IMG/VR virus record: IMGVR_UViG_3300009104_001680
Location: 1-29,429 of that record
Direction: 5' to 3' (one strand)
Length of the DNA stretch: 29,429 nt
From: a virus
How positions within the stretch are numbered: the first letter of the stretch is position 1; each line of letters begins with the position of its first letter. A program made the translations under genes and the position numbers. The notes beneath the pieces are model-generated. The model saw nothing but the letters and a program-made list of their open reading frames with translations. It searched no databases and was not told where the DNA came from. Shown piece by piece: positions 13,220 through 16,099 of the stretch.

Positions 13220-13656
13220 AACCAGGAAATCTTACACCAGGTAAAAAATTTGATCAAGAAAAGCCAATGCTATACTTACTGCCTCCCAAATCTCTAATAG
13301 AGATAGGGAGGGTTCTTACACATGGAGCAGAGAAGTACGGCCCAGAAAATTGGCGTAAAGTAGATGATCTACAGAATAGGTACACAAGCGCAGCATTAAG
13401 ACATATTGTTGCACACATGGAAGGTGAAAAGTATGATGAAGAGACATACTTATCTCACTTAGCCCATGCTATGTGCTGTTTACTATTTAAATTGGAGGAT
13501 GAATTAATTGAAGAGAGTGAAGAAGCAAGAACACGAGAAACTAACGCCCAGCAATATTACTCACGTCATAGAGCTGCTGTCGAAGGAACGCCCGATAACG
13601 AAAAAAGAAGCATGCGAGATTTTGAACATATCGTACAATACAACCCGATTAGCTAA
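13216..13656 (+). CDS. dATP/dGTP diphosphohydrolase N-domain-like protein (DUF5664/MazZ-like)
   Basis: Residues about 11-95 match the domain found in phage MazZ-like proteins: KFDQEKPMLYLLPPKSLIEI, VLTHGAEKYGPENWR, RYTSAALRHIVAHMEGE and LSHLAHAMCCLLFKLEDE. MazZ of phage S-2L hydrolyses dGTP/dATP-type nucleotides, but the substrate here is unknown. The start overlaps the purM stop (ATGA). The last 49 codons overlap the next HTH gene in another frame and look unlike the domain, so the real functional part probably ends near residue 97. Confidence 0.75.
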   Translation: MKPGNLTPGKKFDQEKPMLYLLPPKSLIEIGRVLTHGAEKYGPENWRKVDDLQNRYTSAALRHIVAHMEGEKYDEETYLSHLAHAMCCLLFKLEDELIEESEEARTRETNAQQYYSRHRAAVEGTPDNEKRSMRDFEHIVQYNPIS

Positions 13657-14149
13657 GATAATAGAAGAGCACCACGAAAAGGTAGAATATAGTACTAAAC
13701 GCAGGAGCATGAACAAGGGCAAGAAAGCCCAACCGCATGAAATTCAAACAGCAGTATTAGAATATCTCCAAGGAGATAATATTTCTGAAATAGCTAAAAG
13801 CATGTATCGCTCTGCGGGATTTGTAAAAGGAATATTAGAAAGAATAGGAGTACCACAACGACCCCCTTCAGCAGAAGAACGGGGTAGTCCTGCTTTTTTA
13901 CCTGAAAATTGTGTAGCAGAAGAATTTGTGCCTGGCGAAAAAGTATGGTCTGCAACGTACCATTCTCCTGCTATTGTGGACAAAGAAATAGAAGTAGCAA
14001 ACAAGTATGAAAGCAAAGGATACTCAGTATACGTTTTAGAAAAAACAGAAACTTTTAGTGTCGGAGGATTTTATGCTTATGCATTAGCATGTGAATTAGG
14101 GAAATTGACACACTTGGAAGAGTACGGAGTAAACCTTACAAAAATCTAG
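13508..14149 (+). CDS. HTH DNA-binding phage protein, 213 aa
   Basis: TTG start with GGAGG nine bases upstream. It contains two HTH-like regions: PITKKEACEILNISYNTTRL (about 29-48) and an ISEIAKSMYRSAGFVKGILE segment (about 93-112), typical of a resolvase/sigma-type DNA-reading helix pair. Then comes RPPSAEERGSPAFLPENCVA and a C-terminal alpha/beta part (KVWSATYHSPAIVDKEIEVA). The N-terminal 50 codons overlap the MazZ-like gene. I associate this layout with conserved HTH proteins of T4-like marine phages. Likely a regulator; target unknown. Confidence 0.7.
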   Translation: MKRVKKQEHEKLTPSNITHVIELLSKERPITKKEACEILNISYNTTRLAKIIEEHHEKVEYSTKRRSMNKGKKAQPHEIQTAVLEYLQGDNISEIAKSMYRSAGFVKGILERIGVPQRPPSAEERGSPAFLPENCVAEEFVPGEKVWSATYHSPAIVDKEIEVANKYESKGYSVYVLEKTETFSVGGFYAYALACELGKLTHLEEYGVNLTKI

Positions 14150-14168
14150 GGGAAGCCAAAAATAGTTC

Positions 14169-14198
14169 TTGACAAGAGAGGTAAATTTCAAATATAAT
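14169..14198 (+). promoter_or_regulatory. sigma70 promoter for the nuclease/methylase pair
   Basis: TTGACA (14169-14174), 18-bp spacer and TATAAT (14193-14198), preceded by AAATAGTTC as in several other promoters here. The leader carries GAGGAAAG before ATG 14225. Confidence 0.8.
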
Positions 14199-14224
14199 AG
14201 TAGTCTAAAAATGAGGAAAGAATA

Positions 14225-14710
14225 ATGTTACATATTTTAGAAGAGTTGTTAGATACAATTAAGCCAAAGAAAACAAGTTCAAAATTATTGTTGGCTGCAG
14301 GAATTACTTCATCGCAACAGTCTGTATTAATACAAGCAGGTAATAGATTAGAAGATTTTTGGAATCATTGTACGGATACTCTTGATGATAGTGCATCAAG
14401 TCGTCAAGTGGATTTTTTCTTTGAAAAAGGAGGGAAAAAATATTACTTTGAATTAAAGTCAAATACTAACTTAGATTCTGAAAAAGCTCCCGCCACTATA
14501 GAAAAAGTGAAAAAAGTAGCTAAAGAATTAGAAGCAGATATATTTGGTATCCTTAACCCAGTACGATTTGATGATTACTATGAATCTAAGTTGTCCCAAA
14601 CAATATTTGGTGTTCAAAGTATGATTGACCTTTTGGAACTACCTTTCACTGTAGAACAATATCAAGCTGTATTAGCAAAAAAATTAAAAGAGAAGTTAGT
14701 AGGATGTTAA
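14225..14710 (+). CDS. PD-(D/E)XK nuclease-like protein, candidate restriction endonuclease
   Basis: A 161-residue protein with a PD-(D/E)XK signature: Asp63 in SRQVDFFFEKGG, then YYFELKSN giving Glu76 and Lys78, on consecutive predicted strands. A helical N-terminal part precedes it, and a helical region (ATIEKVKKVAKELEAD) follows. Type II restriction enzymes often have just this layout. Its stop codon overlaps the ATG of a DNA adenine methylase, and both share one promoter, supporting a restriction-modification pair. It could instead be a recombination or DNA-degrading nuclease whose cut is blocked by the methylase. No recognised family name; specificity unknown. Confidence 0.6.
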   Translation: MLHILEELLDTIKPKKTSSKLLLAAGITSSQQSVLIQAGNRLEDFWNHCTDTLDDSASSRQVDFFFEKGGKKYYFELKSNTNLDSEKAPATIEKVKKVAKELEADIFGILNPVRFDDYYESKLSQTIFGVQSMIDLLELPFTVEQYQAVLAKKLKEKLVGC

Positions 14711-15639
14711 AACCAATAGTTAAGTACCAAGGGGGTAAATCAAAAGAAATTCCTGTTATTAAACAATACGCTAAGAATGCTACTAGGATTGTTGAGCCGT
14801 TTGCAGGAGGCGCTGCAGCAGCTTTTTATTTAGGTAAGCCTTCTGTATTATGTGACGTATATCACAATGTAATAAATCTATATCAAGTAGTGGCTAACCC
14901 AGATCATTTTACACAACTTCTGCAAGATGTAGAAACGTTAAAGGATGCAGAACATGATGACTTAGAGGCAGAGTATTATGTTGCTCGAGATTATATAAAT
15001 GAGCATAAAAATTCTACAGACTACGACCCTCAAAAAGCATACTATTATATAGTACTTCGTCAACTTTGTTTCTCTGGAATGGAGAGATACAATGCTGATG
15101 GAGATTTTAATGTGCCTTTTGGGCACTATAAAAGTTTTTCATGTAATTTAGAATCAAAGCATCACGAGTTTTTACAAATCTGTGAGCTTATTCATGGAAG
15201 CTTTGAAGAAGTACAAGTATTGGAAGGAGATTTTGTGTTTATAGATCCCCCATATTTAGATAGACTGGGTTATACAAAAGGGGACGGCTCTTTAGAGCTA
15301 CATAAAAATTTACTAAAATGGACACAAAAGTTAACAACAAATTGGCTTTTAATACATTCAGATCATGAATTTTACTTTGAAAATTACTCACATATTTTAA
15401 CTAATGAGTTTGGCTATTCTCAACGTTTTGGTAAAGACAAAGATCACTCAAATGCTAAAACGTATCATTTATATATAAGTAATGAGCCGAAAGAAATTAA
15501 ATTTTCTTCAGGCACAAAAGAAGGATTACAAATAGAATTAACAGATTTAATTAGAGATGCAGGGTTAGAAGTGGACAGTTCGATAATCTCTAAACTAACT
15601 GGCAAAGCTGCTCAGTATTTTATTAATGTACTATCTTAA
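14704..15639 (+). CDS. DNA adenine methylase (Dam/D12 class) with extra C-terminal domain
   Basis: A 311-residue N6-adenine methyltransferase. Visible motifs: VKYQGGKSKEI (motif X, 6-16), VEPFAGGAAAAF (motif I, 30-41), CDVYHNVINLY (50-60) and VFIDPPYLDR (motif IV, DPPY 181-184). The residues from about 275 to the end are not part of the D12 fold; they match the C-terminal domain of the HTH protein at 15704, including 13 identical residues starting IISKLTGKAAQ. The target site cannot be read from sequence (GATC is typical for the class). It overlaps the nuclease-like gene by 7 nt. Confidence 0.9.
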   Translation: MLKPIVKYQGGKSKEIPVIKQYAKNATRIVEPFAGGAAAAFYLGKPSVLCDVYHNVINLYQVVANPDHFTQLLQDVETLKDAEHDDLEAEYYVARDYINEHKNSTDYDPQKAYYYIVLRQLCFSGMERYNADGDFNVPFGHYKSFSCNLESKHHEFLQICELIHGSFEEVQVLEGDFVFIDPPYLDRLGYTKGDGSLELHKNLLKWTQKLTTNWLLIHSDHEFYFENYSHILTNEFGYSQRFGKDKDHSNAKTYHLYISNEPKEIKFSSGTKEGLQIELTDLIRDAGLEVDSSIISKLTGKAAQYFINVLS

Positions 15640-15648
15640 AAAAAGTTC

Positions 15649-15677
15649 TTGACACAAATGTTAAATAGAAGTATAAT
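15649..15677 (+). promoter_or_regulatory. sigma70 promoter
   Basis: TTGACA (15649-15654), 17-bp spacer and TATAAT (15672-15677), with GAGGAAAC before the ATG at 15704. Confidence 0.85.
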
Positions 15678-15703
15678 ATGTATTATAAAAATGAGGAAAC
15701 CAA

Positions 15704-16099
15704 ATGGGCGACCGATTTTATTTTCAACAACAACAAGCAAGAGGAAAACGCAGAATGGCGTGGGACGATGACAAAAAAGCTCAAGCGGTAGAAATGTACG
15801 AAGAGCAAAACCCAACTCCAGAAACTTCAATGGAGATTGTGGCAGAAATAGCAGATGAGCTAGGAGAAAGCCCCAACGGGGTTAGGATGATTTTAACAAA
15901 AGCTGGAGTCTACATAAAAAAGGCTCAAGCGAATGGGAATGGGGGTGCTTCTGGTGGTGGTACTCGCGTTTCTAAACAAGCTGCACAAGACGCTCTTATT
16001 GCGGCTATAAATGATAAGGGTCTTCCTATCGATGAAGATATTATATCTAAATTGACTGGTAAGGCAGCTCAATATTTTACAGGGCTATTGACCGACTAG
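15704..16099 (+). CDS. HTH DNA-binding protein with shared C-terminal domain (paralog C)
   Basis: A 131-residue protein. After a short lead (MGDRFYFQQQQARGKRRM) comes the HTH-like unit at about 20-70 (TSMEIVAEIADELGESPNGV, RMILTKAGVYIKK), then a flexible Gly/Asn linker (76-86) and the C-terminal domain (ALIAAINDKGLPIDEDIISK...). The latter is nearly the same as the tail of the adjacent methylase and resembles those of the 2787 and 3910 proteins. ATG 15755 with GAGGAAAAC is an alternative start. It has its own promoter and terminator, suggesting heavy or separately timed expression. Confidence 0.75.
   Translation: MGDRFYFQQQQARGKRRMAWDDDKKAQAVEMYEEQNPTPETSMEIVAEIADELGESPNGVRMILTKAGVYIKKAQANGNGGASGGGTRVSKQAAQDALIAAINDKGLPIDEDIISKLTGKAAQYFTGLLTD

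What the first reader, a model, noticed from the sequence alone, without database searches (positions are those of the whole stretch)
14225..15639. Candidate phage-encoded restriction-modification pair of unknown family
A 161-aa protein with Asp63...Glu76-x-Lys78 overlaps a Dam-class methylase by 7 nt under one promoter. The pair could protect phage DNA while cutting host or rival DNA, or license only methylated phage DNA for packaging. I cannot place the nuclease in a named family.
Basis: partly seen in the sequence, partly recalled or inferred. Interest (0 to 1): 0.7.

Follow-up and report, generated by a model that had tools for sequence, protein, structure and literature searches.

The report
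Phage-borne restriction–modification cassette, new nuclease family
A marine T5-like phage carries a two-gene cassette, a DNA-cutting enzyme of a family not described before plus a DNA-marking methylase, which very likely cuts unmarked DNA in the infected cell while sparing the phage; such complete systems are common in bacteria but rarely reported in bacteriophages.

Summary
A 161-aa ORF (14225-14710) with D63...E76-x-K78 overlaps a Dam-family methylase ORF (14704-15639) by 7 nt, behind a perfect sigma-70 promoter. The R-M reading is well supported by comparison; activity is untested. The 161-aa protein belongs to a family (phrog_26553) with no recorded function. Across 35 representatives D63, E76 and K78 are invariant. 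AlphaFold models (pLDDT 85 and 96) give a PD-(D/E)XK core, and the nearest solved structures are nucleases of that fold, including EcoO109I. Divergent members hit the HinfI/HpyAIV profiles at 1e-7 to 8e-7, far below the family cut-offs. In 27 of 35 sequence clusters a DNA methylase is directly adjacent, in four arrangements: downstream, upstream, convergent, or two beta-class methylases flanking. In two of the other eight the matching methylase type lies elsewhere in the genome. dN/dS is 0.04-0.28. In the window the pair sits between T5-like genes D2 and D3, a variable cargo site. A phage 98% identical on both flanks has an HNH gene there instead, and its D3 promoter is the window's R-M promoter. 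Best reading: a mobile Type II-like R-M cassette used against unmodified host or competitor DNA. GATC is the likeliest target (inferred).

The parts
14158..14219 (+). Promoter and leader of the cassette (TTGACA 14169-14174, 18-nt spacer, TATAAT 14193-14198, AAAATGAGGAAA 14208-14219)
   Evidence: Perfect consensus; 60 of 62 nt identical to the leader that drives D3 directly in the sister phage L099
14225..14710 (+). PD-(D/E)XK nuclease (putative Type II-like restriction endonuclease), phrog_26553 family; catalytic E43, D63, E76-x-K78
   Evidence: phrog_26553 1.3e-20; invariant catalytic residues; AlphaFold and structure comparison; dN/dS 0.17 against L003
14704..15639 (+). Dam-family (D12, alpha-class) DNA adenine-N6 methyltransferase, overlapping the nuclease gene by 7 nt
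   Evidence: PF02086 7.8e-34; TIGR00571 above its cut-off; PDB relatives M.DpnII-1, T4Dam, EcoDam
15514..15636 (+). C-terminal extension of the methylase, homologous to the last ~41 residues of the downstream gene D3
   Evidence: Alignment score 103 against a shuffle maximum of 44; also in L003; absent from ORFs of the other loci searched
15649..15677 (+). Second perfect sigma-70 promoter, drives the next gene (D3)
   Evidence: about 79% identical to the cassette's own leader
13508..14149 (+). Left flank: T5-type D2 homolog (phrog_3611); ORF called from a TTG, true start not checked
15704..16099 (+). Right flank: T5-type D3 homolog (phrog_1725, DNA-binding)

Best explanation
The pair is a Type II-like restriction-modification cassette carried by a T5-like marine phage and by many other phages. 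Shown by computation: the first gene encodes a PD-(D/E)XK nuclease of a family so far found only in viral sequence, remotely related to HinfI/HpyAIV; the second is a Dam-family adenine methylase; the two are co-conserved, under purifying selection, and sit as exchangeable cargo between early genes D2 and D3 behind a strong host-type promoter. Inferred: virion DNA arrives already methylated, so the nuclease made early in infection spares it and cuts unmethylated sites in other DNA, namely co-infecting phages and/or the host chromosome; the methylase then marks new phage DNA. GATC is the likeliest target, because the recognition hairpin F-S-x-M-x-R matches T4Dam. Between uses, exclusion of competing phages is favoured slightly over breakdown of host DNA, because the cassette swaps with an HNH endonuclease gene in a near-identical phage and because classical T5 (general knowledge) already destroys host DNA before its early genes act.
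For: Fold: pLDDT 85.3 for the window protein and 95.7 for a relative. Structure comparison lists are dominated by PD-(D/E)XK nucleases: EcoO109I Z 7.2 with 156 aligned, then for the relative EcoO109I 7.2, PspGI 6.5, EcoRII 6.3, HindIII 5.9. Invariant D, E-x-K. HinfI 1e-7 (L082) and HpyAIV 8.3e-7 (L081); HinfI is the most frequent NCBIfam match, 12 of 28 members. Methylase adjacent in 27 of 35 clusters at 90% identity: 22 downstream same strand, 3 convergent, 1 upstream (L033), 1 between two beta-class methylases (L021) (L021 methylases). Unlinked methylases in the genomes of L020 and L057 fall in the paired clade, not with the ordinary cyanophage Dam. The sister methylase clade in KP179/STML-198 is preceded by a different, Hjc-like nuclease. 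Purifying selection. Empty or alternative D2-D3 junctions. Precedent in chloroviruses and marseilleviruses: PMC7253447.
Against: No cleavage, methylation or infection data. Eight of 35 clusters lack an adjacent methylase, six of them in contigs where none was found (fragments). The target is inferred from few residues only. Structure Z-scores are below 8, so no single solved nuclease is a close relative. HinfI/HpyAIV matches are far below those models' cut-offs. Nuclease first and methylase second on one transcript is a risky order unless incoming DNA is already methylated.
Confidence: 0.82

Rival explanations
1. The R-M pair acts mainly on the host chromosome: it cuts unmethylated host DNA to stop host expression and feed nucleotides to replication, as reported for chloroviruses.
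For: Consensus host-type promoter; neighbours are nucleotide-metabolism genes such as dATP/dGTP diphosphohydrolase, AIR synthase and thymidylate synthase; chlorovirus precedent (PMC7253447).
Against: Classical T5 degrades host DNA before early genes act (general knowledge; the corresponding gene is outside the window). Patchy presence and exchange with an HNH gene suggest a dispensable competitive trait.
Confidence: 0.35
2. The cassette is chiefly a selfish mobile element: it spreads between phages by cutting genomes that lack the methylase, and has little benefit for its carrier.
For: Same junction holds an HNH gene in a phage about 98% identical on both flanks; family members sit in different phage groups and gene orders.
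Against: Strong purifying selection on both genes over long distances and retention of both genes even when unlinked suit a maintained function; this rival overlaps with the main reading rather than excluding it.
Confidence: 0.25
3. The nuclease is not restrictive but processes phage DNA (resolvase-like, repair or packaging licence), with methylation as a licensing mark.
For: Structure lists include Holliday-junction resolvases and repair nucleases; nothing here measures activity.
Against: Pairing with different methylase classes and gene orders, the HinfI/HpyAIV affinity, and absence of the cassette from most close relatives, which must process and package DNA without it.
Confidence: 0.08
4. 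The nuclease is methylation-dependent (Type IV-like) and cuts DNA methylated by others, with the methylase serving separately as self-protection against host restriction.
For: Phages often carry Dam-type methylases.
Against: A nuclease that cuts its partner's product would be self-destructive; tight pairing argues for a shared target.
Confidence: 0.04

Closest known systems
HinfI and HpyAIV type II restriction enzymes (GANTC; NCBIfam NF045831, NF045832)
   Same: Catalytic stretch of divergent family members matches these profiles (L082 1e-7; L081 8.3e-7 over 109 residues); restriction-type nucleases
   Different: Scores 14-32 bits against cut-offs of 160-175; family proteins are shorter (161-239 aa against model lengths 264-269) and mostly paired with a Dam-family methylase; target unknown
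EcoO109I (PDB 1WTD, 1WTE)
   Same: Type II restriction enzyme with the best whole-length structural alignment of the window protein (Z 7.2, rmsd 4.1, 156 aligned)
   Different: 10% identity; weak Pfam match (0.1); larger
Marseillevirus GATC R-M system (mel_015/mel_016) and chlorovirus R-M systems
   Same: Virus-encoded nuclease next to an adenine methylase; nuclease transcribed before methylase in melbournevirus; proposed use against competing viruses or host DNA (PMC7253447)
   Different: Eukaryotic viruses; whether their nucleases are related to this family was not tested
T4Dam, EcoDam and M.DpnII-1 methylases
   Same: D12/Dam family, DPPY motif, F-S-x-M-x-R recognition hairpin as in T4Dam
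   Different: About 50 extra C-terminal residues, ending in a segment copied from D3; linked to a nuclease; forms a clade apart from the ordinary cyanophage and T4-type Dam
KP179/KP182/STML-198 nuclease-methylase gene pair (T4-like phages)
   Same: Related methylase gene overlapped by an upstream nuclease-like gene
   Different: Their upstream gene is Hjc-like and not detectably related (hhalign probability 0.1%)

Membership tests
PD-(D/E)XK nuclease superfamily | Conserved D ... (E/D)-x-K catalytic residues | tested here: met
   D63, E76, K78 invariant in 28 and in 35 sequences; E43 invariant in 28 and at least 90% in 35
PD-(D/E)XK nuclease superfamily | alpha-beta-beta-beta-alpha-beta core fold | tested here: met
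   Models at pLDDT 85.3 and 95.7; hits dominated by nucleases of this fold. Predicted, not solved
Type II restriction-modification system | Separate nuclease and methylase genes, closely linked | tested here: met
   27 of 35 clusters adjacent
Type II restriction-modification system | Nuclease cuts a specific unmodified site | not testable with these tools
   Needs enzyme assay
Type II restriction-modification system | Methylase protects the same site | not testable with these tools
   Needs methylome or protection assay
HinfI / HpyAIV restriction enzyme families | NCBIfam score above curated cut-off (175 / 160 bits) | tested here: not met
   Window protein: no hit; best relatives 31.6 and 28.7 bits. 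Relative, not member
phrog_26553 | Match to the family profile | tested here: met
   1.3e-20 over residues 7-151
Dam family adenine-N6 methyltransferase (TIGR00571 / PF02086) | Score above curated cut-off | tested here: met
   145.8 against 114.85 bits; 118 against 22 bits
Dam family adenine-N6 methyltransferase (TIGR00571 / PF02086) | Methylates adenine in GATC | not testable with these tools
   Hairpin residues as in T4Dam only

The most novel reading that the evidence does not exclude
Phages of at least two unrelated groups (T5-like and T4-like cyanophages) share a virus-only family of restriction enzymes that, with exchangeable methylases, forms an offensive R-M weapon against competing phages. 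The D2-D3 junction of marine T5-like phages is then a dedicated site where such weapons (R-M pairs, a second unrelated nuclease-methylase pair, HNH nucleases) are swapped.
Probability: 0.4. Interest if true: 0.78.

Novelty: new variant of a known kind. Interest (0 to 1): 0.6.

Why it matters
Restriction enzymes are usually seen as bacterial weapons against phages; the 2014 Type II review states that their genes rarely occur on bacteriophages (PMC4081073). Here a restriction-type nuclease family recurs in marine phages, including cultured cyanophages S-CAM8 and S-WAM2 where it is annotated as hypothetical. If active, it gives phages a DNA-marking weapon against rivals or host, makes that idea testable in a cultured phage, and adds a possible source of new restriction enzymes.

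Tried and rejected
Cellular relatives: two scans of bacterial and archaeal genomes by short conserved peptides found none, nor did plasmids (one search gave one E=8 match). The scans need exact peptide patterns, so distant cellular members are not excluded. Sequence searches of the PDB with single and profile queries gave only chance hits. Weak matches of single members to PD-Lambda-3_A, KwaA, leucyl aminopeptidase and others were treated as chance, being scattered. A search for the HinfI model in three viral records gave nothing. Site avoidance: GATC is mildly low in the window (53 against 81 expected, second-lowest of 75 motifs), but CCGG is lower and pooled relatives show other motifs, so no target was inferred. 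Relation of the KP179 upstream nuclease to this family was rejected.

Full report
Observation. Both ORFs, their 7-nt overlap, the D63...E76-x-K78 motif and the promoter are real. The window lies in a 29,429-base virus record with no DNA-level match in the phage collection for its central 10 kb.

What phage this is. The right half is a T5-type early block: D5-like regulator, two-part NAD ligase, DnaB-like helicase, primase, polymerase A (44% identical to Vibrio phage pVp-1 and relatives), helicase, single-strand binding protein and SbcD-like nuclease. Gene order matches Vibrio phages VF16 and pVp-1, except that in those D2 and D3 are neighbours about 80 bp apart. In the window the nuclease-methylase pair lies between them.

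The nuclease. It matches phrog_26553 (1.3e-20, no recorded function). Relatives: S-CAM8 and S-WAM2 cyanophages, L003 at 61%, and some 65 IMG/VR loci. In 28 sequences I12, G39, E43, F45, D63, Y74, E76, K78, D84, E86, K87 and K94 are invariant. In 35 cluster representatives D, E-x-K and the following D-x-E-K remain invariant. AlphaFold gives pLDDT 85.3 / pTM 0.81 for the window protein and 95.7 / 0.90 for relative L028, with helix, strands carrying D and E-x-K, helix, strand. Comparison with solved structures lists nearly only PD-(D/E)XK nucleases. EcoO109I is first for the window model (Z 7.2, rmsd 4.1, 156 aligned). For L028, AF1548 (7.8), Upx (7.3), EcoO109I (7.2), PspGI (6.5), EcoRII (6.3) and HindIII (5.9) appear. 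These Z values are middling; they support the fold, not close kinship. By sequence, divergent members L082 and L081 hit HinfI (1e-7) and HpyAIV (8.3e-7) profiles, and 12 of 28 members hit HinfI weakly; all are far below the cut-offs.

The methylase. Dam family by Pfam and NCBIfam cut-offs. Closest solved relatives are M.DpnII-1, T4Dam and EcoDam; its hairpin FSGMERYN aligns with T4Dam FSNMIRIN. From general knowledge of Dam structures this hairpin reads the target, so GATC is the likeliest site, with other GA-TC type sites possible. This is inference.

Pairing. Clustering 73 nuclease ORFs at 90% identity gives 35 clusters. A methylase is adjacent in 27: D12 downstream on the same strand in 22, convergent D12 in 3, D12 upstream in 1 (L033), and two beta-class methylases flanking in 1 (L021). 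Of the eight others, the genomes of L020 and L057 hold a methylase that falls in the paired clade and not with ordinary cyanophage Dam; in L020's genome it is about 8 kb away on the same strand. The rest are fragments without a detected methylase. Conversely, a sister methylase clade in Klebsiella KP179/KP182 and Salmonella STML-198 phages follows a different, Hjc-like nuclease gene. Mutual partner change with retained pairing is what a functional R-M link predicts. Both genes are under purifying selection (dN/dS 0.04-0.28 and 0.05-0.17).

Insertion history. Around D3 in 80 related contigs, D2 and D3 are at most 160 bp apart in 48; 19 carry more than 400 bp between them, 2 carry 161-400 bp, and 11 lack D2. 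Cargo includes HNH (L099), a 2OG-oxygenase-like gene (L102), a PDDEXK_11 nuclease beside a methylase-like gene (L142; L139 similar), and others. L099 is 98% identical to the window on both sides but has the HNH gene instead of the pair. Its D3 leader is 60/62 identical to the window's nuclease leader, so the pair has taken over the D3 promoter, and D3 is now served by a second promoter. The methylase carries a C-terminal copy of the D3 end. A simple reading is capture of the cassette inside a duplicated D3 gene (inference).

How it most likely works. Shown: fold, conservation, pairing, selection, promoter, exchange at the junction. Inferred: early expression, methylated incoming phage DNA, cutting of unmethylated DNA, renewed marking of progeny. 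Competitor exclusion and host DNA attack cannot be separated here; the swap with HNH and the known early host-DNA destruction by classical T5 (general knowledge) favour the former slightly.

Known context. [quoted passage not shown] Type II enzyme genes are said to occur rarely on bacteriophages (PMC4081073). Paper searches found no description of this family or of the S-CAM8/S-WAM2 pair, though subscription papers are mostly not held. I rate it a new variant of a known kind.

Noticed in passing
window 14149-15704 and L098-L177: D2-D3 junction of marine T5-like phages is a variable cargo site: empty in most, otherwise HNH, 2OG-oxygenase-like, PDDEXK_11 plus methylase-like, and other genes.
   Followed up: partly
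L142:2002-2950, L139:464-2950: A second nuclease-methylase-like pair at the same junction: PDDEXK_11 nuclease (6.2e-13) and an NPPF-motif Dam-like protein; L139 has a 517-aa protein without Pfam match between them.
   Followed up: partly
L005:3385-4837, L007:3387-4846: T4-like Klebsiella and Salmonella phages carry an Hjc-like nuclease gene overlapping a Dam-family methylase gene, in KP179 followed by a second, T4-type Dam.
   Followed up: partly
L017:1241-2752: Two tandem copies of the nuclease family in one fragment with no methylase seen.
   Followed up: no
window 1471-26530: Eleven perfect TTGACA-N17/18-TATAAT promoters (0.05 expected), suggesting broad use of unmodified host sigma-70 polymerase.
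   Followed up: partly
window 15514-15636: The methylase's C-terminal segment is a copy of the end of D3, a gene-fusion scar.
   Followed up: yes
window, whole: CCGG (11 against 31 expected), GATC (53 against 81) and GATATC (0 against 6) are under-represented.
   Followed up: no
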